Of a stretch of DNA of 64,000 bases, positions 12,688-51,089 are shown in pieces. Source of the stretch: a virus. Within the stretch, counting starts at the first letter, position 1. Each line of letters opens with the position of its first letter. The position numbers and the translations under genes are program-made. The notes under the pieces are model-generated. The model was given only the letters and a program-made list of their open reading frames with translations. It was not told the DNA's origin and did no database searches. Location of the stretch: positions 1-64,000 of IMG/VR virus record IMGVR_UViG_3300048018_000619. One strand, written 5' to 3'.

Positions 12688-12747
12688 ATTCTTAAAATTT
12701 TATTCTCTCCAACCACAATGACCTGATGAAGTACCAGCGTTTACTGC
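11573..12747. repeat. Duplicated 47-base block at the 3' ends of two fibre paralogues
   Basis: Bases 11573-11619 and 12701-12747 are identical. The block encodes the C-terminal SGHCGWRE and the residues before it. The third paralogue carries a diverged version from about 13833. Other long near-identical stretches between the same genes encode KVGKGYAGNEGSY and SSPWKNVHK. These are coding duplications that could serve as crossover points; they are not a mobile element. Confidence 0.8.
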
Positions 12748-13818: not shown

Positions 13819-13830
13819 ATCTATAAATAG

Positions 13831-33695: not shown

Positions 33696-35264
33696 TTATA
33701 ATTTTTTAATGTAGTCAAGTATGTTTATCTCCTCAGGGGATTCAACATAATCTTGTGCACCAGGATTAGCCCACTGAGGTTCTAAAACCCAACCTTCTTC
33801 CTTAGCAATGGTGAGTACTTCATTAACATATTTATTATGTTTAGTATCATCACCATTTAATGTTGTCTCCAACTCCTTGATATTTGTGTCAGGTATCAAA
33901 TCCCACCACTTTTTTAACATAGGGAACGTTTCTAAGAAATTTTTACCTCTACGTTTATCATATTGTTTGTAAAATGATTTAAAATCCCGTTCTCTAGTCT
34001 CTATAGATGATGTATGGTCATGACCTTCCTCAGTATTTCTTAGATAGTTGATTAAACGGACCATACCATCACGCTCCCAATCCATAAAATAGTTAGAACC
34101 ATCAGTGTAATTGTCCTCGATCCATTTTTCGAGTGCATCCGCCCTTTCTAATCTCATTTGCATTGGTAATGTCACAATTGATTGAAATGACGGGAATCTT
34201 AGAATGTTAAAAGAACATACAGGTGATGAGGATTTATGTCTTCTTTTAATTTTCATCATTTCATCCATAAACTCAGGTAAACTAAAAAGACATAATGAGT
34301 TTATTGTTAACATCATATTAAGTGATTTAATATTTCCCTCATCTAATATTCTATCTACATTTTTTAACCACTTCCTCCAATCTAATCCGTCTCTAATATA
34401 TTCCGCATGAGTTCCATACGCTTCACAACTTGTATAAATGTGAAATGATTTAACATTGTGACTATACTTAATAAGTGCGTCCATTATTTTATCACTTATA
34501 CCCAAGTTAGAGTTTATTGCAAAATCAATTTCTGAGTTTTGGTTTGTTTCCCACCACTTCATTAATTTCCAAAAATTACGGGACATTGATGGTTCACCAC
34601 CTGTTACCCTTAACTCTCGTAATGAGTGTTGTAATTCACCCTCCCACCATTTCCAAAATGCGTCGACATAGGGGTTTTTTAAATTTAATTTTCCATAAGG
34701 CATTGCATGGTCACCATTATGTTGAAATGCACCCGCACCATCACTTACCAGATTTTGGTAGGGACCATTCTTATTGATGTCTTTTTGCCATGTTGTGGAA
34801 AACGATGAGTTACAATATGAACAAGCAAAGTTACATACAGGATCAAACGAAATTTCTAAAGTCCTTAGATCCACATCTTCACTTGCACCTAACTTTTCCT
34901 TGGCATCAACCAATTCTTTATCAGTGTAAATGACTGATTTATGTGTTCTATCAGAAATCATATCTTTCCCCAAATCTTCTATTCTCCAACAGTAATCACA
35001 TTCTTTTGGACGTACACCCTCCAACATTTGTTTACGTACCGCCTTCTTATATGTGGTATTATGGATTGCTTTATACGATTTTTCAAGATCTGTTAGTGGT
35101 ATCTTATGTGACGGTGGGTGATGACAACTTGTTGTTGCCCCGTTACCTAACCATATCGTTGCATTATACCATTTAGCCCCACAAAATGAAGGTGAAATTT
35201 TGTTAATTACCCGATCTCGATATTCGAGAAATGTTTCACCGGGTTTTCTTGCATCTATACTCAT
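33696..35264 (-). CDS. Radical SAM protein, twitch type, paralogue 1
   Basis: A 522-residue radical SAM protein. Cys144, Cys148 and Cys151 (CNFACSYC) bind the SAM cluster, and LRVTGGEPSMS is the GGE motif. Upstream, Cys28, Cys47, Cys89 and Cys92 lie in the segments FCGAKW, SCHHPPSHKI and CDYCWRIED, which probably hold an auxiliary cluster. Such 'twitch' radical SAM proteins are known in marine phages without a defined reaction. The long C-terminal region (from about 380) is helical. It is a paralogue of 35850-37226, with a ConA-like gene in between. The substrate is unknown; a peptide or glycan is possible. Confidence 0.85.
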   Translation of the reverse strand: MSIDARKPGETFLEYRDRVINKISPSFCGAKWYNATIWLGNGATTSCHHPPSHKIPLTDLEKSYKAIHNTTYKKAVRKQMLEGVRPKECDYCWRIEDLGKDMISDRTHKSVIYTDKELVDAKEKLGASEDVDLRTLEISFDPVCNFACSYCNSSFSTTWQKDINKNGPYQNLVSDGAGAFQHNGDHAMPYGKLNLKNPYVDAFWKWWEGELQHSLRELRVTGGEPSMSRNFWKLMKWWETNQNSEIDFAINSNLGISDKIMDALIKYSHNVKSFHIYTSCEAYGTHAEYIRDGLDWRKWLKNVDRILDEGNIKSLNMMLTINSLCLFSLPEFMDEMMKIKRRHKSSSPVCSFNILRFPSFQSIVTLPMQMRLERADALEKWIEDNYTDGSNYFMDWERDGMVRLINYLRNTEEGHDHTSSIETRERDFKSFYKQYDKRRGKNFLETFPMLKKWWDLIPDTNIKELETTLNGDDTKHNKYVNEVLTIAKEEGWVLEPQWANPGAQDYVESPEEINILDYIKKL

Positions 35265-35281
35265 TATTTTATATTATAATT

Positions 35282-35866
35282 TTAAATTTTATGTAGGAAA
35301 TTACAATTCCCTGAAATATCTACTGATTTGTTATGTATAAATTCCTCAAACGTATGTTCAGATATTAATTTACCATCTGTTATTAGTTTAAACTTATGAA
35401 ACTCAAATTCAGTATAATTTGTATTCGTTTTATTCTTAGGGAAGTTACCCGCACCAAAAATTATGTGAGGTGAGTGGTCTAAACCTAATTCCCTTTCACT
35501 CAAATCAACATTTAATATTACTTCACCATTTAAAAACAATTCAAACCTATCTTTATAAATGTGATTTAATTTAATATTAGTTAGTTGATTAGGGACCACC
35601 ATATGTTCTAAGGTATAATATTCTACATCATCTTGAAAAGTGATTGTAAATGAGATATTAGTAGGGTTAATATTTAAACCCATATACCTTGGTACTAATG
35701 CAAATAGAGTTTTCTCCAAATCACTCTCATCTGTTAATACAAAATCAACTTCTAAGGTGTAATTTAATTTATTGGATAGTATTTTGTTTCCCGCATCTTC
35801 AGGAAATGTTTCACAAATACTATTAGGCCAAAATATCCAAGGTTCCCCTTTATTGATTTTTAACAT
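35282..35866 (-). CDS. Concanavalin A-like (LamG-type) protein
   Basis: A 194-residue beta-rich protein with alternating strands such as LNYTLEVDFVLTD, ISFTITFQDD and DRFELFLNGEVILNVDLS, then FEFHKFKLITDGKLI. This is the LamG/concanavalin A-like jelly-roll layout seen in sugar-binding modules. There is no signal peptide. Its start overlaps the end of the upstream radical SAM gene by 17 bases and its stop is close to the second radical SAM gene. It may bind the glycan those enzymes act on, or be their protein substrate. Both ideas are inference. Confidence 0.65.
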   Translation of the reverse strand: MLKINKGEPWIFWPNSICETFPEDAGNKILSNKLNYTLEVDFVLTDESDLEKTLFALVPRYMGLNINPTNISFTITFQDDVEYYTLEHMVVPNQLTNIKLNHIYKDRFELFLNGEVILNVDLSERELGLDHSPHIIFGAGNFPKNKTNTNYTEFEFHKFKLITDGKLISEHTFEEFIHNKSVDISGNCNFLHKI

Positions 35867-37226
35867 AGAACTCTTTTAGTTGTGGAAATGTGTCCAAAAA
35901 ATTTAATTTTCGTCTTTTATCGTACTGATCAACGAATTTAACGAAATCCTTCCTGTTGGTTTCAACGTCGAAGTCGTCCGTACTAATTGCGTAATCATAT
36001 GTTCGTTTTAATTTTTGTATTTCTACGGTAGAAAACCCATAATTATCATGAGTGAATTCCTTCATACCATAATATAACATTTTTTTAGCTGATTGTAAAA
36101 TCAATTCTTTATGATTATCCTCTAAAATTTTAACTGACAGGTGTTTAGGGTGTCGTATGTATGATGTGTCTAATTGTATTGCAGACACCCAATACCTTTC
36201 ATTATTTTGGTATTTTCTTTTCAGATCAAATACTCTATCAATTAAATCATCATATGTGAATACAGATAATGCGTTGTATGTTGACATTATATTAATAGTC
36301 ACTTTTGGTAACTTACTAAGTATTTTCTCAACATTAGTCCAAAATTTACTAGTATCTAACCCATACCTCAGATATTCTGCTTGTGACTTGGTTGCTTCGA
36401 TTGATGTAAAAACAATAAACTCCTTTACTTTATTGTTTTCTGTTAAATCTTCTATGATATTGATGAACCTATCAATGATATCATCACTCACACCTAAATT
36501 TGTGTTTATGGCTAACGATAGGTTAGGATTTACTTCGTGGTTATTTTGTATATATTCCAATAACTTAAAAGTGTCTGATGATAGTAGTGGTTCACCTCCC
36601 GTCACCCTAAATGTGTGTAGGTCAGGATACAAATCAGGGAACCATTTCCAAAACGCCTCAACATATGGATTAAAATCATTATGATGAATTGGCATTTCAT
36701 TTTTCTTTTTTAAATGTTCCGTATCATTATAATCATACGATAATTTATAAGCACCATTTTTATTTATCTCATTCACCCATTTCGATGAGAATTGTGGTCC
36801 ACAATACGCACATTTAAAATTACATACGTTTGAGAAAGAAACCTCAACATATTTTGGATTATAATTACCTCTCCATCCGTATTCTTTAATTTCTTCTATG
36901 TATGGTGCTGACCATGACTCTGAAGATTTAAATACCCTGTCTGAGAATGAGTTTGAGTTGTCCTCGATCTTCCAACAATAATCACACTCACTAGGTCTTT
37001 CACCTTCCAACATTTGTTTACGAGCCCTCTTTTTGTGTTGTGTGTTGTGTAGTGCCGATGGGTTATTTCTTAATTCGGCTAAACCAATTTTATGTGGGTT
37101 GGGGTGGTGACATGAATGTGTTAACCCCGTACCTAAATGTATAGTTACTTGTGTCCACTTTGCAGCACAAAAACCTCTACCCTTTTGGTCTAGTTGTTTC
37201 TTTATGTTGGATAGTAACTCACTCAT
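35850..37226 (-). CDS. Radical SAM protein, twitch type, paralogue 2
   Basis: A 458-residue paralogue of the protein at 33696-35264. Cys135, Cys139 and Cys142 (CNFKCAYC) form the radical SAM site and FRVTGGEPLLS is the SAM-binding GGE motif. The N-terminal cysteines 20, 39, 81 and 84 are in the same order (FCAAKW, SCHHPNPHKI, CDYCWKIED). It is about 64 residues shorter. Its start overlaps the stop of the GT7 gene by four bases (ATGA). The two copies probably catalyse related steps with different substrates. Confidence 0.85.
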   Translation of the reverse strand: MSELLSNIKKQLDQKGRGFCAAKWTQVTIHLGTGLTHSCHHPNPHKIGLAELRNNPSALHNTQHKKRARKQMLEGERPSECDYCWKIEDNSNSFSDRVFKSSESWSAPYIEEIKEYGWRGNYNPKYVEVSFSNVCNFKCAYCGPQFSSKWVNEINKNGAYKLSYDYNDTEHLKKKNEMPIHHNDFNPYVEAFWKWFPDLYPDLHTFRVTGGEPLLSSDTFKLLEYIQNNHEVNPNLSLAINTNLGVSDDIIDRFINIIEDLTENNKVKEFIVFTSIEATKSQAEYLRYGLDTSKFWTNVEKILSKLPKVTINIMSTYNALSVFTYDDLIDRVFDLKRKYQNNERYWVSAIQLDTSYIRHPKHLSVKILEDNHKELILQSAKKMLYYGMKEFTHDNYGFSTVEIQKLKRTYDYAISTDDFDVETNRKDFVKFVDQYDKRRKLNFLDTFPQLKEFYVKNQ

Positions 37227-38608
37227 AACTTAACATTAAAGATTTTACATTTTTCTGTATGTTGGATAGTTTCAACTAGTTCATATTTTAAACTATTAAT
37301 ACCATCAGTTTTATAATCTAACTTACCTTGTTGCATTTCAGTGACAAATCTTTTTTCATTTCTTGCGGTAGTTTCACCTTTAGCCCACCTTCCATTCACT
37401 AAACCTTCATCTAAATGTGGTAAACAATAAAATTTACCTTCTCGTCTATATGGTAAGATACTTTCATCAATTTCGATAGTCTCTTTCTGTAATTCCACAT
37501 CATTTTTTATACTATCTTCATCATTGTTCATGTCGTATATGATATTTTCATTATTTAATTTACACTCTTCAAATGTGTCGAAGAATCTATCGTATATTTT
37601 TAATTCTGCAACCTTACCCTTAAAATTGGTATTTTGGTGATTACATCTACCAATATTAAAATCACCCATCAATGAGTGAGATCTTATTTTATCTGGTAGA
37701 TCAATGGGTTTAGATTTAAGAACATCTCCATTATTAGAAACTAATTTATTATTTGAAAATATGTACAACTTTTGTTCATCGTGTTTATATGAAACGGTGA
37801 ACCATGTCCATTTATTCTCTACCGCCTTTGACCAGTGATATAACGGATTGTTTATCTTATCGTGATTCAGTATCGATAATGCTCTTGAATTGTTAAACGA
37901 TATCCCCCAAGTCCAACTTCCGTCTTTTCTTAGTATGGGATATTCTATAAATTTTCTTTCTTCATCACCCACTAACCATATTGGTACAACTTCAGGTTGT
38001 TGTTCAGGTGAAACTAATATAGAGATGGTGTGATCTCTAAACAAAGGTGTGGTTAAACCTCTATGTGATTTAAAAGTTAATGATGATGTTTCACCATTAA
38101 ATAGATGTACTTCTTTATCTTCAATAGTTTCATATATTTTTCTATCAGAATGTCCTTCATAGAAACATCTCCAAAATAAATCATCATCCTCTTGTCCCCA
38201 ATCCCAATAGTTGTTAGAATACCCATTTGTTTGTACTAAATGTTCTTTATTGAAAAGTACGACACCTCCAAAATATTGTTCATAACCCATAGACCATGAG
38301 TATTTTGATAATTTTGTTGCAATATGTGTCGGAGTATCATAGGGATATGAATAGTCACATGTCTCATCATGAGGTAACATATCAACATCATGAAATGCAA
38401 CATAATCACAACCGTCTTCCATTGCTTTAACAGCAGCAATATTCTTCATTGCACCTCTATTGAATAGTTTATCATCTACTTGATGCCCAACATAAACACA
38501 GTACTCTATACCCTGTTTATTTAGATGTTTATCTAATTTAGGTAATAACTCATTCAAGTGTGATTCCCTGTTTCTATATGGTATGCATATTCCTAATTTA
38601 TGACTCAT
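37223..38608 (-). CDS. GT7 beta-1,4-galactosyltransferase-like enzyme interrupted by a LamG module (461 aa)
   Basis: Residues 1-150 carry family GT7 signatures: IPYRNRESHL, LFNRGAMKN (FNRG 49-52), FHDVDMLP (DVD 74-76) and WDWGQEDDD (135-143). From about 180 to 365 the chain becomes a LamG-type domain (SLTFKSHRG ... FNIGRCNHQNTNFKGKVAELKIYDRF). Then residues 380-461 return to what resembles the GT7 C-terminus: GKFYCLPH, ARNEKRF, KTDGINSLKYELVE. This resembles the RF...SDGLNSLTYQV tail of animal beta4GalT. So the lectin module looks inserted into the catalytic domain. It likely adds Gal or GlcNAc-type sugars; metal and UDP-sugar use are inferred. ATGA overlaps both neighbours. Confidence 0.82.
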   Translation of the reverse strand: MSHKLGICIPYRNRESHLNELLPKLDKHLNKQGIEYCVYVGHQVDDKLFNRGAMKNIAAVKAMEDGCDYVAFHDVDMLPHDETCDYSYPYDTPTHIATKLSKYSWSMGYEQYFGGVVLFNKEHLVQTNGYSNNYWDWGQEDDDLFWRCFYEGHSDRKIYETIEDKEVHLFNGETSSLTFKSHRGLTTPLFRDHTISILVSPEQQPEVVPIWLVGDEERKFIEYPILRKDGSWTWGISFNNSRALSILNHDKINNPLYHWSKAVENKWTWFTVSYKHDEQKLYIFSNNKLVSNNGDVLKSKPIDLPDKIRSHSLMGDFNIGRCNHQNTNFKGKVAELKIYDRFFDTFEECKLNNENIIYDMNNDEDSIKNDVELQKETIEIDESILPYRREGKFYCLPHLDEGLVNGRWAKGETTARNEKRFVTEMQQGKLDYKTDGINSLKYELVETIQHTEKCKIFNVKL

Positions 38609-40029
38609 ATCCCAACATTTATATGTATTTGATTATTTTTTGAGGTCCTGTTCCATATTTTAAAATCTAAATTAGAAAGACCGTCTTTATTAGGGTCTCT
38701 AAACCCTTTTTCCATTTCGTTATGAAACCTAAGTTGATTATAACGTATATTAATATCTGACCACACACCGTTTTTATATCCGGTGGTCTCATGAGGTAAC
38801 ATCTCAAAATAAGATGTTCTCCTAAATGGTACCTTTATTATATGTTCAATATCATAAGTATAATGTACTAGTTCACATTTTTCTAATTGTAAGTAATTTT
38901 CCCTATCGACTAAATCCATGACCCTATATTCACTTATGTACTTCATATCGAAATAGTGACGTAAAGCATGAGAAGATCCATACTTGCCAAAATCCATTGT
39001 TAATGAGTACTTTTCGTTGGTTGATATTTCTTCTATTTCTTTCGATTTCAATATTTTATTATAAATCGCAACCTGTGATATAATACCTTTAAATAAATCT
39101 TTTTCTTTATTAGTTGATCCGACAAACAACTCTTTTTTGATGCATTTAGGTATAGTCTTTGAAAATTTCATAGACCCAACCTCTTTGGAATCTTGGTACA
39201 TAGTTAGGATCTTTCTTTCCACACTAAGTGTTACAACTAAAGTTGTTTTTCTGTTGGTTTCAATTTTACTGTCAACATAACACCAATCATTATTATCTTT
39301 CATTAAAACCTTATATCTTCTAAAAGAATCGTAACTAATGGTTAAATCTAATTTAGGAATAGAGAGTGCGGTATATCTATCGTACGATTGATCAGTATCA
39401 CACACAATTCCATCAGGGTCGATTGTAACCATAATAGTTAAATCATCTTCACTTGTATCGATATCTACATATCCCTCAGAATAAGCGTTCATACCATTAA
39501 ATTTAATTGCCGAGTTTGGACCTCCTTGTGTATTTACATATTTTAAATCATACGGAATACCCTTGTCAACACATCTTTTGAAGAGATCGTCATCTTCAAA
39601 ACCCCATCCCCAATATTCATTAGAGTAACCATTGATAATTTCAAACGACTCTATTGGAAATATGGTAACACCCCCAAAATATTGATCATATAACTCCCTC
39701 TTAAAGGTTTTATCTTCAGATAAGAAATCAGTGGCTAAGTGTATTGGTACATCCGAATATGAATAATCGACTTTCAATGGTATCATATCTATGTCATGAA
39801 AAACCACATAATTGCAATTTGATTTTACTGCCTCTTTATATCCTATATTTAATAATTTACCTCTATTAAATAATTTAGCATCATCCTGTTCTACCACTAT
39901 TAAAACATAATCAATACCGTTTTCACTCAAGTACTCACCAATCTTTTCTTTAAATTTTAATAATTGTCTATACCTATCTCGGTATGGGACTATGACCGCT
40001 ATCTTATTCTTCTTCTTCGTCTTCGTCAT
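38605..40029 (-). CDS. GT7 beta-1,4-galactosyltransferase-like enzyme interrupted by a LamG module (474 aa)
   Basis: A paralogue of the gene that follows it. With the ATG at 40029 it has 474 residues and begins MTKTKKKNKIAVIVPYRDR. I prefer this to the longer frame from 40083, which would overlap the 75-residue gene further. Motifs: LFNRGKLLN (54-57), FHDIDMIP (78-81) and WGWGFEDDD (140-148). A LamG-type module occupies about 170-340 (AIKFNGMNAYSEGYVDI ... FKGIISQVAIYNKIL). The GT7 tail returns at about 410-474: FEMLPHE, YNQLRFHNEM, DGLSNLDFKI and IHINVGI. Cytoplasmic glycosyltransferase; specificity unknown. Confidence 0.82.
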   Translation of the reverse strand: MTKTKKKNKIAVIVPYRDRYRQLLKFKEKIGEYLSENGIDYVLIVVEQDDAKLFNRGKLLNIGYKEAVKSNCNYVVFHDIDMIPLKVDYSYSDVPIHLATDFLSEDKTFKRELYDQYFGGVTIFPIESFEIINGYSNEYWGWGFEDDDLFKRCVDKGIPYDLKYVNTQGGPNSAIKFNGMNAYSEGYVDIDTSEDDLTIMVTIDPDGIVCDTDQSYDRYTALSIPKLDLTISYDSFRRYKVLMKDNNDWCYVDSKIETNRKTTLVVTLSVERKILTMYQDSKEVGSMKFSKTIPKCIKKELFVGSTNKEKDLFKGIISQVAIYNKILKSKEIEEISTNEKYSLTMDFGKYGSSHALRHYFDMKYISEYRVMDLVDRENYLQLEKCELVHYTYDIEHIIKVPFRRTSYFEMLPHETTGYKNGVWSDINIRYNQLRFHNEMEKGFRDPNKDGLSNLDFKIWNRTSKNNQIHINVGI

Positions 40030-40231
40030 TATCTTGTATAGTGTGTTTATGCCATTCGTGCATATAATATTGGATTCTTTCATCCCAACCCGATTTGTCT
40101 ATTTCTTCAAACCATATTGTTAGTGCATCCAAAGTATTTGCAATTTTTTCTAACGATTTAACTTTTCTTTCTTCTAAGATTAATCTTTCTTCTTCAAAAG
40201 ATATATTTGTTTTTATTTGTTTTTTTGCCAT
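40004..40231 (-). CDS. Small acidic-tailed protein (75 aa)
   Basis: A 75-residue protein: a basic N-terminus (MAKKQIKTN), a long helix (EEERLILEERKVKSLEKIAN), the segment LDALTIWFEEIDKSGWDERIQYYMHEW, and an Asp/Glu tail (NDEDEEEE). I recall similar small helical proteins in marine phages but no function. It overlaps the following GT7 start by 26 bases, which implies coupling, and the ATG follows the GT2 stop by two bases. It could be a small partner of the glycosyltransferases. Confidence 0.6.
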   Translation of the reverse strand: MAKKQIKTNISFEEERLILEERKVKSLEKIANTLDALTIWFEEIDKSGWDERIQYYMHEWHKHTIQDNDEDEEEE

Positions 40232-40233
40232 GA

Positions 40234-41088
40234 TTATATACTTATTATTTTTCTTATTAATTTATCCCAATGTTTATATGAACTGTAGATTGGTTTACTT
40301 GACTTTAAAAATAGGTAGTCTTTATTTTTAAGATTAACTATGAAGTTCGTTTTTCTCAATTCATCATAAAGTTTTAAATATTCTTTAGAATATGCGTACG
40401 GTTCGTTAACATCTACCACTTTTTTAATACGACTCTTACAGGTTTCATCCCATTTAAAATGGTGTACTTGTACGGAATGTTCTTTATATGGGGCAATCAT
40501 TGGATGTGTCCATCCTTGCCACCTCCAAGTGGTATGACCATCTATATTCGCATAATGTTGACCATTAGTTATTTCAATATTACCTTTTACCACACATATC
40601 TTGTTGGGACATGCATTACTCATAGGATACCTAAAAAAACCTGCGTATGGGAATTGTTCAAATATGGGTGTCGAACTTTCTAATTTAGGGAACTCACCTT
40701 TAGGTCCGACCCTATCTATAAAACCACCTCTAACTACCGACCATAAATTTTCATCACATTCTTTAATCATATCACGTAAGTTACTGTAAGGATATACGTG
40801 GAATTCATCTATATCTGCAATAACCCACCAATCATTCTTTTTCTTTGATTTAATCATATTATAGAGAATGGTTACTTTTTCCCAATCGAAAACACGATCT
40901 CTTACCACCTTTACTATTTTACAATTATCGTATTTTTCAATTATTGGTTTTGACCTACTTAGTATTCTTGATGATGCTTCAGATTCATATATGACAAATT
41001 GTAATTCATCTACATGTTTACTGTAATGTTCAATAAAATGGGGTAATAACTCATGTCCATGACCCAAAACACATAATAATCTTATCAT
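40234..41088 (-). CDS. Glycosyltransferase, GT-A fold (GT2/GT92-like)
   Basis: A 284-residue enzyme with an N-terminal RLLCVLGHGHELL segment, a strand/helix pattern of GT-A type, and WWVIADIDEFHVYP with Asp92 and Asp94 as metal ligands. SVQVHHFKWDE in the C-terminal half is typical of this branch, which is annotated as Glyco_tranf_2_4 or GT92-like. It should transfer a sugar in the cytoplasm. Its start overlaps the methyltransferase stop by four bases (ATGA), so the pair may modify the same glycan. Confidence 0.7.
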   Translation of the reverse strand: MIRLLCVLGHGHELLPHFIEHYSKHVDELQFVIYESEASSRILSRSKPIIEKYDNCKIVKVVRDRVFDWEKVTILYNMIKSKKKNDWWVIADIDEFHVYPYSNLRDMIKECDENLWSVVRGGFIDRVGPKGEFPKLESSTPIFEQFPYAGFFRYPMSNACPNKICVVKGNIEITNGQHYANIDGHTTWRWQGWTHPMIAPYKEHSVQVHHFKWDETCKSRIKKVVDVNEPYAYSKEYLKLYDELRKTNFIVNLKNKDYLFLKSSKPIYSSYKHWDKLIRKIISI

Positions 41089-41810
41089 TTTCTCTTAATT
41101 ATTGTTATTCCTGTTGAGGAAGGTTTATCTTTTATGTTTCCGAAATTAAATAAGTCCATTACTACCCACTCATCGTTATTTTTTAACTCTTCTACTAACT
41201 TGGAAGGACCATCGAAGGGGAAGAAATCTTTTTTAGAATCTTCAGATATAATTAAAGTTTCGGAATATGAAGAATCACTATCGTGCACCATTATTAAACC
41301 GTTGGGGTTTAACCTTTTTGAGTACAGATCAAAATCTTTCTTCACACCTTCGTACGAATGGTCACCATCAATAAAAAGTAAATCAATCATGATATCTTCT
41401 CTAACAAAAAAATCATAATACGCTTTTTCTGATGTCTCCTTTATGAATCTTGGGAAGAAGGTCTTCTGATAAAAACCTTCCATATCACATATATTACTAT
41501 CACCACCAACACCATTACAAGGATCAACAACATATGTTGTTCCAATATCACCCCAACTATACGTGGGGTTACCTTCAAAAATTCCTTGTTTATGTAGATC
41601 GATTCTTGCTTGTGTCATTATTCTCGGAATGTAACCACCCCCCGTTCCAATACAAACACAATTTTTATATCTCATGTGTTGTATCATGGAGTAAACAACA
41701 ATCCCATCACCCAAATGACTGTTAGTTGCACCATGTGTCCACAGAAAAGGTAGTTTTTCACCATTATCTGTAGTTATATTGGACTCTATGTAATTTTGGT
41801 TAGTTATCAT
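41085..41810 (-). CDS. Class I SAM methyltransferase (Methyltransf_24-like)
   Basis: A 241-residue protein with a SAM-binding CVCIGTGGGYIPRIM segment, WGDIGTTYVVDPCNG, and the acidic IDLLFIDGDHSYEGVKKD block typical of Methyltransf_24. GLIMVHDSDSS gives a later metal/SAM site. It probably methylates a sugar hydroxyl. It is coupled by four-base overlaps to the GT-A genes on both sides. It differs from the methyltransferase at 7315-7980 but has the same DGD(H) arrangement. Confidence 0.78.
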   Translation of the reverse strand: MITNQNYIESNITTDNGEKLPFLWTHGATNSHLGDGIVVYSMIQHMRYKNCVCIGTGGGYIPRIMTQARIDLHKQGIFEGNPTYSWGDIGTTYVVDPCNGVGGDSNICDMEGFYQKTFFPRFIKETSEKAYYDFFVREDIMIDLLFIDGDHSYEGVKKDFDLYSKRLNPNGLIMVHDSDSSYSETLIISEDSKKDFFPFDGPSKLVEELKNNDEWVVMDLFNFGNIKDKPSSTGITIIKRK

Positions 41811-42579: not shown

Positions 42580-44082
42580 CTAATCTAAACCAAATGGTGT
42601 TTTAAATGAGATATAATTTTGATATACCTCATTATCTGACAATTCATTATTGTATCTTCTAAATACAGGTATGGTACCATCGAAATAAGCGTTCCAACTT
42701 TTACCTATACTATTCACAGGACCACCATTTGTTGTATAACTATTAAATCCTGAGGTACTGTCTTTAACACCGTTTATGTAAAGGTCCATTGAAGAGTTAT
42801 AACCCCTATTCACCCATACTAAATGATAATATTCATTATAGTTTACCGTAATATTACTGTTGTGGTTTTTCCATGATCCATCATAATTTCTATAATGCAT
42901 CTTATTACCATATATCCCAAATGCGTTTGTAACGGGACCTCCCGAATTATTAGATAATATTGAATAACTGGAACTATGTGCGTTTACAATAACCTCTATA
43001 GCCCAACTACCATTACCTAAAGTAACACTATCTATGTCAATATAATTAGAACTACCATTAAATTCGGGATAACCATCAGATGTCCAAGAAATATTTGTTG
43101 TGTCTAATGTTTGGTTACCCTTAATATCAATTAATGATTCAGTGTTTGATCGTGTACCTTGAGTGAATTTTGTTGCCTCATCTTTATTAATCTCAACCAT
43201 AAAATCACACATATCAATTGAGTATGGTTGGGTTGGTGTGTTTGGCCACCAATATGATATAAAGGAATAGGTGTTTGATGCCGTCCAACTAAATTCATAT
43301 TTCTTCCATTGTGTTGTAAGTGGTCCAAATGAAGTTGAACTACCTGAAAACCCCGAACCAAAATACGTCGAGTACCCCAAAGATTTACCTTCACCTCTTC
43401 CGTCCGCTAATTTTAACCATACACTTACAGTGACCACATCACCTTGAGTTACAGGTGTATTAACACCATAAGCCATACCATCAACTACACCATCGGGTCT
43501 ATACGCATGTAATCTCATTGCATTAGTACCGTGTCTTATTCCTTCGTTTGGTACTATCTCCTTAATTAATCCCGAATTTGGAAGGTGTGGTCCTCCCCAC
43601 CACATCGTTGGGAAGTTAGTTGCATTTATTGATATTCTTGTGTCATTTACATATGCATCATGAACTTTAAAAAATCCCGTGTCAGGGTTTATATATCCTT
43701 GAGAACCGTTTTGAGATGAATTATATTCATGTAAAGTGAATGAATCAGTATTGTTTATTTTTTTAATAACGTAATTAGTACCTGCGGTTACCCCACCACC
43801 ACTTGTTTGTGGTTTCAGAACATCAAAACTTCTGATAGTCCGTCCAACCGTACCTAAAATTACTATATTATTAGCTACCGATTGAATTGTACCTATTGAG
43901 AAGTAGGTATTACTATTATATTGATTGGTGTTGTAGGTACTCCAACCATTTTGAATGGTGAAATTACTATTATGTTGAGGTGAGGGTACTAAATTAGTTG
44001 TTGGTTCACCACCAAAGGAGAAACCTTGGGAATCATAACCAAAAACCAAATTTTCATTATTTAGACCACCACCTATTTTCAT
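42580..44082 (-). CDS. LamG adhesin, 500 aa
   Basis: A 500-residue fibre-associated protein. Residues 1-170 begin with GGGLNNENLVFGYDSQG, the leader shared with the other LamG genes, and a Gly/Asn-rich part. About 175-315 is a carbohydrate-binding-like beta-sandwich (NAMRLHAYRPDGVVDG ... WKKYEFSWTASN). SNTESLIDIKG marks the junction to the C-terminal LamG domain (about 340-495), with GSWAIEVIVNAHSS, YYHLVWVNRG and the final NELSDNEVYQNYISFK. Such modules bind glycans. No signal peptide is present, as expected for a virion protein. It probably contributes to host adsorption. Confidence 0.75.
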   Translation of the reverse strand: MKIGGGLNNENLVFGYDSQGFSFGGEPTTNLVPSPQHNSNFTIQNGWSTYNTNQYNSNTYFSIGTIQSVANNIVILGTVGRTIRSFDVLKPQTSGGGVTAGTNYVIKKINNTDSFTLHEYNSSQNGSQGYINPDTGFFKVHDAYVNDTRISINATNFPTMWWGGPHLPNSGLIKEIVPNEGIRHGTNAMRLHAYRPDGVVDGMAYGVNTPVTQGDVVTVSVWLKLADGRGEGKSLGYSTYFGSGFSGSSTSFGPLTTQWKKYEFSWTASNTYSFISYWWPNTPTQPYSIDMCDFMVEINKDEATKFTQGTRSNTESLIDIKGNQTLDTTNISWTSDGYPEFNGSSNYIDIDSVTLGNGSWAIEVIVNAHSSSYSILSNNSGGPVTNAFGIYGNKMHYRNYDGSWKNHNSNITVNYNEYYHLVWVNRGYNSSMDLYINGVKDSTSGFNSYTTNGGPVNSIGKSWNAYFDGTIPVFRRYNNELSDNEVYQNYISFKTPFGLD

Positions 44083-44786
44083 AATCCGTACCTTTCTTTA
44101 CCGTTATTATATATTTGTAAAATTTCATCATCAGACAATGTAATATTGTACCCATATACCTGACCTATATTACCCGTGTGATAATAACCTGCGGAGTGAT
44201 AATCAGCACCAAGTAATGTGTTACCACTATCATTAACCCCTCCTCTAAAATTTCCATTTGTGTTTGTAAATCCAACAGTATTTTTTAAAACACCGTCAAC
44301 ATAAATTTTGATGTCACCTGTACCACCATTTCGTGTACAAACCAATAAATGATATTCTCCATCACCTGTTATATCTACATTGGAACTTAGTAAATGAGAT
44401 GCACCACCACCATCACCCATCCAAGCCGCGGCCGCTCCGTGATACCTACTCATTAATTTAAGACCGTATAAATAACTACTTGAAGTTCCTATCACGGTTT
44501 GGTGTGGGGCACCAGTACTTCCCTGTTTAACCCAACCAACTAATGAGACATCGTATAGATTTCGTAGGGGACTTGTTGTCCCATAATTAAAATAACTACC
44601 ATTTGCACCAAAGGTAAATGTCCCACCACCATCGGTTACGTGTGTAATTGTTCCTGTAATGGTCGTACTATCATCTGAATGTGCGGTATTTCTATAATTA
44701 AGACCATCCCACGATTTTGTACTCGCAGGATCTACTGAAAAAATTAAACCTTCTTTAGGTATGTTTGGTCCTAAGTGTATTCCCAT
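44079..44786 (-). CDS. LamG adhesin, 235 aa
   Basis: With the ATG at 44786 the protein has 235 residues and begins MGIHLGPNIPKEG, matching the MGI/MGV starts of the sister genes; the longer frame from 44861 overlaps the coupled micro-gene and lacks that pattern. The whole chain is one LamG domain: DVSLVGWVKQGSTG, YHLLVCTRNGGTGD, IKIYVDGVLKN and the terminal LSDDEILQIYNNGK. It shares TAATG with the preceding 38-residue gene and overlaps the following LamG gene by four bases. Confidence 0.75.
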   Translation of the reverse strand: MGIHLGPNIPKEGLIFSVDPASTKSWDGLNYRNTAHSDDSTTITGTITHVTDGGGTFTFGANGSYFNYGTTSPLRNLYDVSLVGWVKQGSTGAPHQTVIGTSSSYLYGLKLMSRYHGAAAAWMGDGGGASHLLSSNVDITGDGEYHLLVCTRNGGTGDIKIYVDGVLKNTVGFTNTNGNFRGGVNDSGNTLLGADYHSAGYYHTGNIGQVYGYNITLSDDEILQIYNNGKERYGL

Positions 44787-44902
44787 TATAAATTCTGTTC
44801 TGCCTCTTCTAATGTTTCGTATACACCGACTAAGTTTGCATCTTCCAAGACAAACCAACACCGTACACCATCTTTATTTATACCTTCTTCTATTATTTTC
44901 AT
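44786..44902 (-). CDS. 38-aa micro-protein coupled between two LamG genes
   Basis: A 39-codon frame beginning MKIIEEGINKDGVRCWFVLED and ending EEAEQNL. The start overlaps the stop of the upstream LamG gene (ATGA) and the stop overlaps the start of the downstream LamG gene (TAATG), which strongly supports a real gene. It is acidic and may form a short beta hairpin followed by a helix (ETLEEAEQNL). I do not know a function. Confidence 0.65.
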   Translation of the reverse strand: MKIIEEGINKDGVRCWFVLEDANLVGVYETLEEAEQNL

Positions 44903-45573
44903 AATCCAAATCTCGATTTTTGTGCATTATAGTTTTGTAAAACTTGGTCACCACTTACAGTGTTATTATAAACCTTAATCACTGATATTCCACCTGAAAA
45001 TTGTCTACTGTCACCCTCCCAACCAATATTAAGGTCAGAATAGTATGTCCCCGTAGTTGTGGATGTTGTTACGGTATTTTCTAAAACACCATTTATGTAC
45101 TGATAAAGTTTTCCCGTTGAGGAATCCCATACCGACATTAAGTGATGCCACCTGTTTCGATCCATTTGTGTTGTTGGTTCATGATATCCACTTGGACTTG
45201 CCGAATACCAATAATTACTTAATCTTCTATTTGACTTATTCCAACTTAAATAACAATACCCCTGAATTACTGCACCTCTATCTCCTGAACTTACTTCGTC
45301 TTGAGGATATATCCATGCTTCCAATGTTAGATCATTTGTAGTTCTATTATTATCGGTATTGGCGTTAAATCGTTTTCCCACCGCATCTAATATGAAACAT
45401 TTAGCACCACCTAATTCCCCATGAGTTGGGGAACCGATAATATCCGCATTGTGACCATTACCACTCAAATCGTACCAAGTAGTACCACTACCCGGATATG
45501 ATCTTTGTGACGCCGCATCTAAAATTAAATTAGCCTGAACACTATTTGTGTGTGCACCTCTGAATATTCCCAT
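44899..45573 (-). CDS. LamG adhesin, 224 aa
   Basis: A 224-residue protein starting MGIFRGAHTNSVQ and made of one LamG domain: WYDLSGNGHNADIIG, DLTLEAWIYPQDE, RWHHLMSVWDSSTGKLYQYING, then the terminal VSGDQVLQNYNAQKSRFGL helix that is standard for this family. The likely role is glycan binding at the phage tail. TATTTATA on the - strand occurs between three and twelve bases before the ATG. The nearest upstream gene is a glycosyltransferase, so adhesin and enzyme genes alternate here. Confidence 0.75.
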   Translation of the reverse strand: MGIFRGAHTNSVQANLILDAASQRSYPGSGTTWYDLSGNGHNADIIGSPTHGELGGAKCFILDAVGKRFNANTDNNRTTNDLTLEAWIYPQDEVSSGDRGAVIQGYCYLSWNKSNRRLSNYWYSASPSGYHEPTTQMDRNRWHHLMSVWDSSTGKLYQYINGVLENTVTTSTTTGTYYSDLNIGWEGDSRQFSGGISVIKVYNNTVSGDQVLQNYNAQKSRFGL

Positions 45574-46965: not shown

Positions 46966-48345
46966 TTAAACCGGATAAGTACCCATATTAATTTTATTTT
47001 TTTGTGCATCATAGTTCTCTTGAACTTGATCTGAACTTAAATTTTTACTCCATAATCTAAATGATAAAATATCATTAGTACCTGGTCTATTAGTTGCTCC
47101 TCTTCCTAAAGAATGTAAACCTAGACTTTCTCCATGAGTGAACGTCCAACCAAACGTTGTTGTTTTTTCATTACCATTCTTATATAATGTAAATGTTCCT
47201 TGATTAGATCCTGTAGATTCATAAACAATGGTTAGATGATAGAATCTACCTTGAGGGAAAACCGACGCCTTAGTCCAACCAGTGTATTTTATTTGGGAAC
47301 TACCATTGTAACCTTCATAGTATGTCAATTGATTACTATGAAACATCCAATATCCACCATTACCTAAGTCTCCTCCGAATATACCAGACCAACTACCATC
47401 ATTAACATCCCAAGGGTTAAATACCACTTCCGCAGTCCAACTTTGTGATGGTGAATATGTAATTGGATCCACCGAAATATAATCATCAGTACCGTCCATA
47501 TCAAAATAGTTTAATTGTCTATAACCATCTCTCATACTTGAAAACTCTCCCGAGTTATTAGGTGTCATATATTGTTTGTCCGATCCTAAACTTTTAAAAC
47601 TTGATTCCCCCCTAAATAATAATTGTTCAATTGTTGGTTCATTACCGTCAATTTTGTCGATTCTTGGATATGCAAATTCAAGCCCCGATGACGTGTTTGT
47701 TGTATAAAAATGATAAGTTCTGTGTTGTGCCGATGTGGTTGTTTCATTCCATCTGGTGTCTTGATCACCACAATTACCATAACTTTTATCACTTATTTTA
47801 GTCCCATTTTCATACCACCCCGATTTAGGATGTCTACCACCACTATAACCCGCATAAAATACGTGAGCAACCACCAAATACCATTGATTATGTATTAAAT
47901 TTGAAATTGATGGGTATGTAAAATAAGGATTACCTTGAGAGGATCCGTTATCATTTCTTATTGGGTTTGGGTTCATTCCCATGTAAAAGGTACCTCCCGT
48001 TCCTGAAGTATGTCGTCTAACCCAAACAGAATACCTGTAAGTGTATTGTACATCAACATTATAATAACTACTATTCCAACCACCATCAGCACCTGAAGTT
48101 GCATCGGGTGTTGTTCTCCAAATAACCGATTGTCTACCCCAAGGATCATCAGAAATTACCGCCCTTAATTGTTCGGTGGAACTTCCATTAGAACCATACC
48201 CCGTAAAACCTCCAGTACCTGTTTGCCAAAACCCCGGATCTGTAAGAATGTTACTTGTTTGTAAATTCCTTAATGTCGATCTTATACTTTGAGCATCCAC
48301 CGATAATACTAAGTTGTCTGTATGTATTTTTGATCCTATATTCAT
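46966..48345 (-). CDS. LamG adhesin, 459 aa
   Basis: A 459-residue protein. The leader (MNIGSKIHTDNLVLSVDAQS) resembles the other LamG genes. About 30-240 forms a beta-rich carbohydrate-binding-like part (GWNSSYYNVDVQYTYRYSVWV, WYLVVAHVFYAGYSG). From about 280, YFDMDGTDDYISVDPITYS introduces the LamG domain: SWTAEVVFNPWD, FYHLTIVYESTGS and the final LSSDQVQENYDAQKNK. It shares TAATG with the preceding gene, so translation is coupled. Likely a host-glycan-binding tail protein. Confidence 0.75.
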   Translation of the reverse strand: MNIGSKIHTDNLVLSVDAQSIRSTLRNLQTSNILTDPGFWQTGTGGFTGYGSNGSSTEQLRAVISDDPWGRQSVIWRTTPDATSGADGGWNSSYYNVDVQYTYRYSVWVRRHTSGTGGTFYMGMNPNPIRNDNGSSQGNPYFTYPSISNLIHNQWYLVVAHVFYAGYSGGRHPKSGWYENGTKISDKSYGNCGDQDTRWNETTTSAQHRTYHFYTTNTSSGLEFAYPRIDKIDGNEPTIEQLLFRGESSFKSLGSDKQYMTPNNSGEFSSMRDGYRQLNYFDMDGTDDYISVDPITYSPSQSWTAEVVFNPWDVNDGSWSGIFGGDLGNGGYWMFHSNQLTYYEGYNGSSQIKYTGWTKASVFPQGRFYHLTIVYESTGSNQGTFTLYKNGNEKTTTFGWTFTHGESLGLHSLGRGATNRPGTNDILSFRLWSKNLSSDQVQENYDAQKNKINMGTYPV

Positions 48346-49577
48346 TATATATTAAATCTTCTTTTATAAGAATTAAAATTTCTTTTAATTTGGTTATCAT
48401 CTAAAGGTTGTTTGTACAGTTTGATTACCGGCATCTCACCGTTAAAATATCTTGAATAACCACCATTATATTCATATCTACCAACGTATCTTGTTTTCAA
48501 AGCACTAAAACTTGATGAAAAGGAAAACGACGTGTGGTCACCCCCCTCAGGTTCACCATTAACATAGTACTGCATACTAGTTCCTGATTTTTGGACGAAC
48601 GCAACATGGTACCAAGTATCACTATTAAATACCGTGTTACCATATTTCCATACCCCTTGCCCATGATCCCAAACCGCTAATTTCGATTGGTATATTGCTA
48701 ACCAATTAGCGTTAAAATCGTCCGCTTCCGCAGAGTTAAAATGTTGTAAGGTGGACGCACTATGAGTATAAAAAACATATTCGGCTGTCCATCCTTTATT
48801 ATTTGGTGATAACATTATATCACTCCCGAAATCAATAAACTCATTAGTTCCATCAAAAGTAAAATTCGCAGTAGGGGTTTCATAGGGTATTACACTATTT
48901 AAATGTGCAACCGCACCTCCCGATTCATTCTCATAACCCCATCCGAATGCATTTCCTGCACCTAAACCAGGTCTACCAACTAAAACAAATTCTCTCCTTC
49001 CATTTGCCCATGTTAAAACTTCTTTAGGTGCCCCCAAATCCACCAAAGTCTCTCTAATTCCCGTAACATCATATCTATCATTTGCATGACTTGCAATTAT
49101 TACGTGAGTAGCATCAGGAAAATTTGATTTGATTATCTCATAATCATCTAAAAATTTATTTGACTCACTAACATAATCCGTAGATGAATATAAATCATAA
49201 CAATGACCATTTATTCTCATTCCTGTGAAATAGGAATCAGGTACCCAATCAACTCCATCATGAACATAATAGTTAAGTGACCTACTAGCACCATAAGTCA
49301 TACTTCCGAATTGTACGTTATGACCTGGTGTGACACCATCTCTATTTGCGGGACTATAGTTACCTTCAGGGTAAGTTATGGCATATAAAGTATAATATTG
49401 TGCATCAGTTAAGTGTGGAGAGAAGGTACTTGGGTATTCACTCTTATCAATTAAATTTTTAATAATGTTATCCGCAGAATATGTACCGTTAGGTGTGAAC
49501 CCTCGTATTGAACTTCCCGAGTCTAAGGAAATTACCAACCCATCTCTCTTTATTTTAGGACCTGACGATACACCCAT
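48345..49577 (-). CDS. Adhesin with ILEI/FAM3-like GG domain and LamG domain (410 aa)
   Basis: The leader (MGVSSGPKIKRDGLVISLDSG) is followed at about 100-230 by a block like the GG/ILEI domain of the FAM3 family: ATHVIIASHANDRYDV, LVDLGAP, RREFVLVGRPGLGAGNAFGW. That domain is known in T4 long tail fibre protein gp35 and in animal FAM3 and POMGNT1. Residues about 240-405 form a LamG domain (FDGTNEFIDFG, GWTAEYVFYTHSAS, WYHVAFVQKSG, LDDNQIKRNFNSYKRR). This combination suggests a tail-fibre hinge or tip protein. It shares TAATG with the next gene. Confidence 0.7.
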   Translation of the reverse strand: MGVSSGPKIKRDGLVISLDSGSSIRGFTPNGTYSADNIIKNLIDKSEYPSTFSPHLTDAQYYTLYAITYPEGNYSPANRDGVTPGHNVQFGSMTYGASRSLNYYVHDGVDWVPDSYFTGMRINGHCYDLYSSTDYVSESNKFLDDYEIIKSNFPDATHVIIASHANDRYDVTGIRETLVDLGAPKEVLTWANGRREFVLVGRPGLGAGNAFGWGYENESGGAVAHLNSVIPYETPTANFTFDGTNEFIDFGSDIMLSPNNKGWTAEYVFYTHSASTLQHFNSAEADDFNANWLAIYQSKLAVWDHGQGVWKYGNTVFNSDTWYHVAFVQKSGTSMQYYVNGEPEGGDHTSFSFSSSFSALKTRYVGRYEYNGGYSRYFNGEMPVIKLYKQPLDDNQIKRNFNSYKRRFNI

Positions 49578-49579
49578 CT

Positions 49580-49912
49580 TTATTGAATATCATTACTTGG
49601 GCTCCACTCAGGAGACCTTAATAATTCTAAGATTTCCTTGTGGTTATATTCTTGGTACTCTTCAGAATAAATTGAAGGTCTACCATAAACTCCAACTTCT
49701 ATTGTATTAGTATAAATTATTGTAGGGTCTTCGGCGTCTTGATATTCCTCATTATATTCTTCTGTTACCACATTAACCTCATATTTAATAAAAGTTTTTG
49801 AACCATCTACAGAAAATCTTAATGATTCTGATGATGACTCAAGTACTTGATTGAAATCAATTGTATCTATTAATGTTGTTGGTATTACTAACCATCTTCT
49901 GTTTTCGTACAT
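49580..49912 (-). CDS. Small tail-associated protein (110 aa)
   Basis: A 110-residue acidic protein with NRRWLVIPTTLIDTIDFNQVLE and LRFSVDGSKTFIKYEV, a pattern that I associate with small proteins near tail-fibre genes of marine phages. No enzymatic motif. The function is unknown. It sits between two LamG genes, with a four-base gap to the upstream one. Confidence 0.55.
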   Translation of the reverse strand: MYENRRWLVIPTTLIDTIDFNQVLESSSESLRFSVDGSKTFIKYEVNVVTEEYNEEYQDAEDPTIIYTNTIEVGVYGRPSIYSEEYQEYNHKEILELLRSPEWSPSNDIQ

Positions 49913-49916
49913 ATCG

Positions 49917-51089
49917 TTATAAGTTAAATCTGTTTTTATAGCTGTTATAATTTTGTTTTATCTCGTCGGATGTGAGTGCTCTACCATATACTTTACCAAC
50001 ATACACCGCACCATTAAAATAATAATCATTATATATTGGTGTCCATCTACCTGAACATATGGGTTGAGGTATAAAATTGGGAGTTGATGAAAGACTATAC
50101 GTCGAATCTGATACTCCATTTATAAACCACTCTATTGTGTTATTAGATGAGTCGTATTTTAATACGGCATGAAATGGTACATTCTCTTGAATAACGTAAG
50201 ATGTGTTTTTGGACGCATATTCTCTTGACCCATTTGTATATCCAATAGAGGCACCTAACCTACTTCCACTTACATAGTTTATTCCAAAATTAGATTGTGG
50301 AGACTGAAAGTGGTGATTTGTTAGTATACCCGCAGGTGAGTCGGGGGCTCCTGTAGACATAGCTACAATTTCCCATGTTTGATCTCCCTTTATTAGAAAG
50401 TCCTCATAAGTAACAAGATAATCGTTTGTACCATCAAAAGTAGGTTGTCCTGTTGAATCAAACGATAGGTTAGACATATCAATATCTGTTGTTCTTTTTA
50501 GATCTATGAGTGACTCTGTTGATGGTCGGTCACCATCCACATGTGGGGTTACGACACTTCCTAATTCATATTGAGGTGCCGTAAAGTAAGCAACTCCGTT
50601 GGTTCTATATGCGTTTGCAACATTACCGTAATTATTAACATCATTAGTAACTGTTTGAGATAACCTTACCCACCTACCTAAAGGTGGATTTTGTGTGTCA
50701 CCATACGCCCATGGATTCCAATGTTGACCCACCGTTACGATTGTTCCTGATTCTAAATAACAGTAAACACTATGGACATAATTACCACCCACACCATTTA
50801 CTACGTTAGAGGTTCCCATTATACCTTGATTTAATCCACCATCGTTAGATTGTAACTTATAAACTTCAAACCCTTGAGCTTCAAGTGGTGGTGGTACGGG
50901 TGGTGTTGCATTTCTTGTGGCGGTTATATTCCCACTGGTGTAACTATGTGAGTTTTTATTCCAAGTATTAGTTGTGGGTTTACCTTGGTAAAACCTACTA
51001 CTCGTGTGATTGTCGCACACACCGTGTCCACTATCATATCCGAATACTAATCCACCTTTTTCCATATTTGGTCCTCTATGAATTCCCAT
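49917..51089 (-). CDS. LamG adhesin, 390 aa
   Basis: A 390-residue protein starting MGIHRGPNMEKGG. The N-terminal section (30-200) is beta-rich with VNGVGGNYVHSVYCYLES. RPSTESLIDLKR joins it to the LamG domain (about 215-388): FDGTNDYLVTYEDFLIKG, QTWEIVAMSTGAPD, FHAVLKYDSSNNTIEWFIN and the final ALTSDEIKQNYNSYKNRFNL. Its ATG follows the TAG of the 2934-residue fibre with no gap. It is probably a receptor-binding or accessory protein of that fibre. Confidence 0.75.
   Translation of the reverse strand: MGIHRGPNMEKGGLVFGYDSGHGVCDNHTSSRFYQGKPTTNTWNKNSHSYTSGNITATRNATPPVPPPLEAQGFEVYKLQSNDGGLNQGIMGTSNVVNGVGGNYVHSVYCYLESGTIVTVGQHWNPWAYGDTQNPPLGRWVRLSQTVTNDVNNYGNVANAYRTNGVAYFTAPQYELGSVVTPHVDGDRPSTESLIDLKRTTDIDMSNLSFDSTGQPTFDGTNDYLVTYEDFLIKGDQTWEIVAMSTGAPDSPAGILTNHHFQSPQSNFGINYVSGSRLGASIGYTNGSREYASKNTSYVIQENVPFHAVLKYDSSNNTIEWFINGVSDSTYSLSSTPNFIPQPICSGRWTPIYNDYYFNGAVYVGKVYGRALTSDEIKQNYNSYKNRFNL

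What the first reader, a model, noticed from the sequence alone, without database searches (positions are those of the whole stretch)
37223..40029. GT7 galactosyltransferase catalytic domain split by a nested LamG lectin module, twice
Both proteins start with complete GT7 motifs (FNRG, HD[VI]D, W[DG]WG.EDDD). The expected GT7 C-terminus (RF..E....DG.[NS].L....) reappears only after about 200 residues of LamG-type sequence. In animal beta4GalT this tail (RF...SDGLNSLTYQV) directly follows the EDDD region with a short connection. A lectin domain nested inside the catalytic domain would be an unusual arrangement, and having it in two paralogues suggests that it is functional.
Basis: partly seen in the sequence, partly recalled or inferred. 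Interest (0 to 1): 0.75.

Follow-up and report, generated by a model that had tools for sequence, protein, structure and literature searches.

The report
Galactosyltransferase with a nested lectin domain
Two neighbouring genes of an uncultured T4-like phage encode sugar-transferring enzymes whose catalytic domain is split by a lectin-like domain at the hinge of the active-site lid, an arrangement kept in hundreds of related phage genes, which suggests the lectin helps choose or hold the molecule that gets the sugar.

Summary
Both proteins (37223-38608 and 38605-40083, minus strand) are GT7 enzymes whose catalytic domain is interrupted by about 230 residues of LamG/concanavalin-A-like sequence. 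A profile of the last 79 residues alone finds only beta-1,4-galactosyltransferase 1 in the whole PDB (E 0.0016), and a viral tail profile finds the tails of 22 of 24 uninserted bacterial GT7 proteins above all 1,200 shuffles. In those bacterial proteins the tail follows the EDDD motif directly, so the LamG sits at one exact junction, just before the lid that carries the metal-binding histidine. AlphaFold2 models of both proteins are confident (pLDDT 92 and 90; pTM 0.88 and 0.86).

It is no local oddity: 310 of 312 complete viral open frames found here are nested and none is uninserted. The genes lie in a conserved cassette (methyltransferase, GT2, two or three GT7-LamG, twitch radical-SAM) of T4-like phages, beside tail genes. 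No isolate phage record held here has it; one bacterial bin does.

Most likely both are active transferases of a phage glycan pathway, with the LamG docking the acceptor at the lid. The nested fold is well supported; the LamG's role and the acceptor are inferred. New variant of a known kind.

The parts
38605..40083 (-). p2: GT7 glycosyltransferase with nested LamG; likely start at 40029
39544..40014 (-). p2 first part of the GT7 domain (FNRG, HDID, WGWG.EDDD), residues 24-180
38848..39543 (-). p2 nested LamG / ConA-like module, residues about 181-412
38608..38841 (-). p2 second part of the GT7 domain: lid strand with metal His431, N449, DGL, C-terminal strands (residues 415-492)
37223..38608 (-). 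p1: paralogous GT7 with nested LamG; its start overlaps the p2 stop by 4 nt
38135..38608 (-). p1 first part of the GT7 domain (residues 1-158)
37475..38134 (-). p1 nested LamG-like module (residues about 159-378)
37226..37474 (-). p1 second part of the GT7 domain, with metal His398 (CLPH), N417, DGINSLKY
40234..41088 (-). GT2-type glycosyltransferase (Glyco_tranf_2_4), conserved directly upstream of the GT7 genes
   Evidence: 64 of 73 loci
41085..41810 (-). Methyltransf_24 gene, conserved upstream member of the cassette
35850..37226 (-). twitch-domain radical SAM protein (NF033640, 340 bits), conserved directly downstream
   Evidence: 63 of 73 loci
33696..35264 (-). second twitch-domain radical SAM protein (NF033640, 320 bits)

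Best explanation
p2 and p1 are paralogous GT7 (beta-1,4-galactosyltransferase-like) enzymes. A concanavalin-A-like LamG module is inserted at the N-terminal hinge of the lid (long flexible loop), between the helix after the Trp-loop/EDDD motif and the strand that carries the metal-binding His. The chain forms most of the GT-A core, leaves it, folds a LamG domain, and returns to finish the same active site: DxD in front of the insert, metal His and acceptor-binding lid behind it. The enzymes are most likely active and work, with the upstream GT2 and other sugar genes, in a phage-encoded glycan pathway. The LamG most likely binds the acceptor (a growing glycan or a glycosylated protein) next to the lid and so sets acceptor choice or processivity, as a built-in counterpart of what alpha-lactalbumin does for B4GalT1. 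Shown here by sequence and model: the nesting, its site, conservation of catalytic residues, and the cassette. Inferred: activity, acceptor binding by the LamG, sequential action of the paralogues, and target (host surface glycan or virion protein).
For: Nesting: Pfam domain order; the A2 profile matches uninserted bacterial GT7 at positions 3-155 and then 405-477 with no residues between (L086: residue 181 then 182); tail-only HMM tests; 310 of 312 complete viral ORFs nested, 0 uninserted. Fold: AF2 pLDDT 92.2/90.2, pTM 0.88/0.86; Foldseek matches B4GalT1/B4GalT7 for the GT part (E about 1e-14 over about 150 residues) and pentraxin/LamG folds for the insert (TMt up to 0.73). Activity: p1 34/34 and p2 43/43 gap-free relatives keep both Asp of DxD, E163/D164 and the post-LamG His. 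Lid site: in human B4GalT1 the lid is residues 338-365, and its movement repositions Met340/His343 to build the Mn site and forms the acceptor-contacting helix (PMC6198961); bovine site I is Asp254, His347, Met344 (PMC7565966). Single origin: trees of the GT7 part without the LamG, and of the LamG alone, give the same p1/p2/p3 groups. Cassette: 73/73 loci same strand, 67 with GT7-GT7 adjacent, 64 with GT2 before, 63 with radical SAM after; near tail sheath and tube in L125 and S74 fibres in the window and L127.
Against: No coordinates or PAE were available, so tail-to-core contacts were not measured; a covariation test was inconclusive (core-tail couplings only at background, Neff 145). The LamG is less conserved than most of the GT7 core (block mean entropies about 2.1-2.9 against 1.2-2.1 bits), and its ligand site is unknown, so acceptor binding is not shown. 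No biochemical data are known to me for any member. The third paralogue (p3) has altered motifs (FNY, ExLD), so not every copy need be an active transferase.
Confidence: 0.6

Rival explanations
1. The LamG is an architectural module (dimerisation, or anchoring to the other cassette enzymes or to LamG-type tail proteins) and has no direct part in acceptor choice.
For: LamG faster evolving than the GT core; proteins just upstream in the window carry related LamG domains, so LamG-LamG contacts are possible; B4GalT1 itself is a homodimer with the lid near the interface (PMC6198961).
Against: Insertion at the lid hinge in every member, where a structural tag would more simply be at a terminus; structural relatives of the insert include sialidase lectin domains and pentraxins.
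Confidence: 0.25
2. Simple domain fusion: GT7, then LamG, then an unrelated C-terminal region (not nested).
For: Pfam hits alone stop at GT7C position 60 of 78; phmmer with single sequences does not score the tail significantly.
Against: Tail-only profile finds only B4GalT1 in the PDB and bacterial GT7 tails above all shuffles; metal His, Asn and DGL motifs retained.
Confidence: 0.02
3. On the target: the cassette decorates the phage's own tail fibres or other virion proteins.
For: Cassette lies among tail genes: S74 fibre of 2934 aa in the window, sheath and tube in L125, S74 fibre in L127. Twitch radical-SAM proteins, related to many peptide modifiers (my knowledge), are constant partners. 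Virion glycosylation is reported for mycobacteriophages (Freeman 2023, as cited in PMC12619734).
Against: No acceptor or sequon identified; the same region of pelagimyophages carries glycosyltransferases read by their authors as O-chain modifiers (PMC7029224).
Confidence: 0.4
4. On the target: the cassette modifies the host's surface polysaccharide (O-chain or capsule), for example to block superinfection.
For: Published reading of glycosyltransferases in the host-recognition cluster of marine T4-like phages (PMC7029224); sugar-nucleotide epimerase, UDP-glucose dehydrogenase and carbamoyltransferase genes in the window; the one apparently cellular member (L087) sits beside a GT2 and an ABC exporter.
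Against: No flippase or polymerase was recognised among the cassette genes searched; radical SAM partners are not typical of O-antigen loci (my knowledge).
Confidence: 0.4

Closest known systems
Animal beta-1,4-galactosyltransferase 1 (B4GalT1, CAZy GT7; PDB 6FWT, 1FGX)
   Same: GT7N/GT7C, DxD, Trp loop, EDDD, metal His in the lid, NPQRF and SDGLNSL tail motifs
   Different: In B4GalT1 the lid follows the EDDD helix after a short link; here about 230 residues of LamG lie between. No Golgi anchor or stem. The Met ligand position is variable here (mostly C in p1; S, M, L or T in p2).
Uninserted bacterial GT7 proteins (e.g. Parachlamydiaceae L081, Simkania L084, Planctomycetota L085/L086)
   Same: Nearest uninserted relatives: up to about 50% identity over the core and the R.G.[YF]..L.H lid strand
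   Different: No insert: A2 profile positions about 155 and 405 are adjacent in them
Lactose synthase (B4GalT1 plus alpha-lactalbumin)
   Same: A second folded module that changes acceptor choice of a GT7 enzyme (working analogy only; PMC6198961)
   Different: Alpha-lactalbumin is a separate, unrelated chain; here a beta-sandwich lectin-like module is part of the same chain and its effect is untested
GalNAc-transferases with a ricin-type lectin domain (GT27; my knowledge)
   Same: Glycosyltransferase with a lectin module that guides acceptor use
   Different: There the lectin is a C-terminal fusion on a linker; here it is nested in the catalytic domain, in another GT family with another lectin fold
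Host-recognition cluster of pelagimyophages (PMC7029224)
   Same: T4-like marine phages with glycosyltransferases and radical SAM genes among the tail fibre genes
   Different: The passages read stress GT8 and do not describe GT7-LamG

Membership tests
CAZy GT7 / Pfam Glyco_transf_7 | Glyco_transf_7N and Glyco_transf_7C above curated cut-offs | tested here: met
   75.9 and 65.9 bits (p1), 75.4 and 63.9 bits (p2); cut-offs 27 and 23
CAZy GT7 / Pfam Glyco_transf_7 | Catalytic motifs FNR, DxD, W.WG.EDDD | tested here: met
   Near-complete conservation in 35 p1 and 43 p2 sequences; p3 copies deviate
CAZy GT7 / Pfam Glyco_transf_7 | Lid with metal-binding His and the conserved C-terminal segment | tested here: met
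   His in 34/34 p1 and 43/43 p2; tail-only profile finds only B4GalT1 in the PDB
CAZy GT7 / Pfam Glyco_transf_7 | Contiguous catalytic domain (usual, though not a formal criterion) | tested here: not met
   Interrupted by about 230 residues at one junction; this makes it a variant and does not remove homology
CAZy GT7 / Pfam Glyco_transf_7 | Mn2+-dependent transfer from a UDP-sugar, beta-1,4 linkage | not testable with these tools
   No biochemistry possible; donor and linkage unknown
LamG / Laminin_G_3 (ConA-like) domain | Profile and fold match | tested here: met
   p2 37.7 bits (cut-off 27.6), p1 24.2 bits below cut-off; profile of the insert matches LamG, sialidase lectin and pentraxin structures; Foldseek to pentraxins TMt up to 0.73
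LamG / Laminin_G_3 (ConA-like) domain | Carbohydrate or Ca2+ binding | not testable with these tools
   No ligand site assigned
T4-like phages (gp23 lineage) | gp23-type capsid protein and large terminase in the carrier genomes | tested here: inconclusive
   gp23 in 7 of 11 and terminase in 8 of 11 carrier records, but neither was found in the window's own 93 kb fragment nor in its two nearest relatives

The most novel reading that the evidence does not exclude
The nested LamG is a covalent specificity subunit: by gripping the acceptor at the lid hinge it couples acceptor binding to lid closure, and two such enzymes with a GT2 and twitch radical-SAM proteins build an unknown glycan (or glycosylated peptide) on the tail of a large uncultured group of T4-like phages.
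Probability: 0.25. Interest if true: 0.8.

Novelty: new variant of a known kind. Interest (0 to 1): 0.58.

Why it matters
It appears to be a natural domain insertion at the moving lid of a well-studied glycosyltransferase fold, kept through duplication into two or three paralogues and spread over hundreds of environmental phage contigs. It gives a ready natural experiment (inserted against uninserted GT7) for asking how a lectin-like module can control a glycosyltransferase. It also marks a syntenic glycan/radical-SAM cassette that was not found in any isolate phage record held here.

Tried and rejected
Simple C-terminal fusion: rejected. Chance similarity of the tail: rejected by shuffles and the PDB search. 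The viral tails alone against the PDB were ambiguous, with B4GalT1 at E 0.4 among unrelated glycoproteins; adding bacterial tails settled it. Assembly artefact or local oddity: rejected, since hundreds of contigs carry the same arrangement. Viral GT7 lacking the insert: none among complete ORFs; of the two 'no tail' cases (L007 and L135, overlapping parts of one contig, IMGVR_UViG_3300021962_000573), L007 was traced to a frameshift with the tail in another frame. Covariation to prove core-tail contact: inconclusive at Neff 145. Foldseek does not align across the insert, so it covers one part or the other. Isolate phages: no match for p1, p2, the first radical SAM or the GT2, and only weak LamG-level matches for a relative of p1. 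Literature: no paper found on GT7 with a nested lectin or on this cassette in the searches made; the library holds open-licence papers only. A fold of the two GT7 parts joined without the LamG was not done, because the fold tool takes unaltered sequences only.
Full report
WHAT IS THERE. Two overlapping minus-strand genes encode p2 (38605-40083; likely start 40029) and p1 (37223-38608). They overlap each other by 4 nt, and p1 overlaps the following radical SAM gene (35850-37226) by 4 nt, so they look like one operon. Each begins with the first part of a GT7 domain, continues with a LamG/ConA-like domain, and ends with about 80 residues. Pfam scores GT7N and GT7C well above cut-off in both, but GT7C stops at profile position 60 of 78, and LamG follows. 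The window's record is a 93,252-base virus fragment.

IS THE TAIL REALLY GT7? Single-sequence searches do not score it, so profiles were used. 73 viral loci were fetched with p2 and 100 non-redundant relatives aligned (A2). The tail carries near-invariant P419, R421, H431, N449 and G468. A genome scan found 32 bacterial loci. Most are uninserted GT7 proteins in which the A2 profile matches positions 3-155 and then 405-477 with little or nothing between (for example L086, residues 181 and 182). A tail-only HMM made from viral proteins scored 22 of 24 of these bacterial tails above the best of 1,200 shuffled tails. A profile of viral and bacterial tails, 79 positions, searched against 177,635 PDB sequences, hit B4GalT1 entries only, best E 0.0016, aligned to their C-terminus.

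WHERE EXACTLY IS THE INSERT? It lies between the helix after W.WG.EDDD and the strand leading to the metal His. In human B4GalT1 the lid comprises residues 338-365; its closure repositions Met340 and His343 to form the Mn site and forms the acceptor-contacting helix (PMC6198961). Bovine site I is Asp254, Met344, His347 (PMC7565966). The phage C/M-L-P-H corresponds to M-I-R-H of B4GalT1; this last step is my alignment by eye, using the bacterial proteins as a bridge. So the LamG sits at the base of the lid and divides the metal ligands: DxD before, His behind.

DOES IT FOLD AS ONE ENZYME? AF2 with family alignments gives pLDDT 92.2, pTM 0.88 for p2 and 90.2, 0.86 for p1, with confident helices and strands in the tail. 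Foldseek matches the GT part to B4GalT1/B4GalT7 and the insert to pentraxin/LamG folds. No viral model among the listed BFVD hits spans both parts (best TMq 0.38). Coordinates and PAE were not available, and a covariation test was inconclusive, so direct packing of the tail on the core is inferred and not measured.

HOW COMMON AND HOW OLD? Of 312 complete viral ORFs classified (with redundancy among overlapping loci), 310 are nested and 0 are uninserted. The two without a recognised tail are p1 in L007 and L135, loci from the same contig, and in L007 the tail lies in another frame. A tree of the GT7 part without the LamG puts bacteria, p1, p2 and p3 in one group each (support: bacteria 88/62; p2 99/92; p1 100/100; p3 100/98), which fits one insertion before the duplications, although the root is unknown. 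The LamG-only tree gives the same p1/p2/p3 groups. Genome contigs yielded 9 complete nested proteins. Several lie on MAG contigs with the phage cassette, while L087, from a bin of about 3.4 Mb, has a GT2, an ABC exporter and an LRR-kinase protein as neighbours and seems cellular. The arrangement is therefore mainly, but not only, viral.

WHO CARRIES IT? Seven of 11 carrier records examined have a T4-type gp23 capsid protein and 8 have a large terminase. One capsid protein is 66% identical to that of Flavobacterium phage immuto and 50% to that of Microcystis phage Mel-JY01. The window's own fragment has no recognised capsid gene, so its T4-like nature is by association. No isolate phage record matches p1, p2, the GT2 or the first radical SAM protein.

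SURROUNDINGS. In 73 loci all cassette genes are on one strand; two GT7 genes are adjacent in 67, the GT2 precedes in 64, a radical SAM gene follows in 63, the methyltransferase is seen before the GT2 in 30 (3 kb flanks limit all counts). A third GT7-LamG paralogue (p3) occurs in many, with FNY for FNR, ExLD for EDDD and the lid His in 16 of 22. The radical SAM proteins are NF033640 twitch-domain proteins. Tail sheath and tube (L125) or S74 tail fibres (window, L127) are close by. Sugar genes elsewhere in the window include an epimerase, a UDP-glucose dehydrogenase, a Nol-like carbamoyltransferase and a GT1.

HOW IT MOST LIKELY WORKS. Catalytic residues on both sides of the LamG are kept in p1 and p2 relatives (34/34 and 43/43 for the lid His), so these are most likely working enzymes. 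Because acceptors bind under the lid in GT7, and because the insert belongs to a superfamily with many lectins, the simplest role for the LamG is to hold the acceptor, tuning which glycan is extended. This is like alpha-lactalbumin in effect, not in kinship. An architectural role remains open (0.25). The target, virion protein or host surface glycan, cannot be decided from sequence; both have precedents.

VERDICT. It is GT7 by all testable features except contiguity. Novelty: new variant of a known kind. I found no description in the papers searched, but the library is partial and UniProt and AlphaFold DB could not be searched.

Noticed in passing
window 35850-37226 and 33696-35264: Two twitch-domain radical SAM proteins (NF033640, 340 and 320 bits) are constant partners of the GT7-LamG genes; substrate unknown, no match in isolate phages for the first (the second was not searched).
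   Followed up: partly
L036:1274-2758, L042:1265-2752, L059:1016-2578 and about 19 others: Third GT7-LamG paralogue (p3) with altered motifs (FNY for FNR, ExLD for EDDD, lid His in 16 of 22); a few even lose the DxD. Possible pseudoenzyme or changed donor use.
   Followed up: partly
L087:4941-6431: A nested GT7-LamG protein in a bacterial bin of about 3.4 Mb, beside a GT2 and an ABC exporter; a related bin (G014) has one on a 3 kb contig. Apparently a cellular home of the architecture.
   Followed up: partly
window 35282-35866: 194-aa protein between the two radical SAM genes, no Pfam, PHROG or NCBIfam match; by eye LamG-like; syntenic in L123 and L125 (41-45% identity).
   Followed up: no
window 14982-25313 and 51090-59894: Giant proteins of 3443 and 2934 aa; the second ends in a Peptidase_S74 chaperone (tail-fibre type). 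They share similar stretches with other long ORFs of the record and its relatives.
   Followed up: partly
window 11572-14970: Three tandem paralogues of phrog_1417 (unknown function).
   Followed up: no
window 42580-45573 and 48345-51089: Row of proteins, several with LamG matches and MGI(F/H)RG-like starts, probably virion appendage proteins, immediately upstream of the cassette.
   Followed up: partly
L007:4464-5900: p1 of this contig is frameshifted after the LamG; the tail continues in another frame.
   Followed up: yes
window 5405-6418: Membrane transporter-like protein (DUF401, 48.8 bits; weak CitMHS) in a phage fragment.
   Followed up: no
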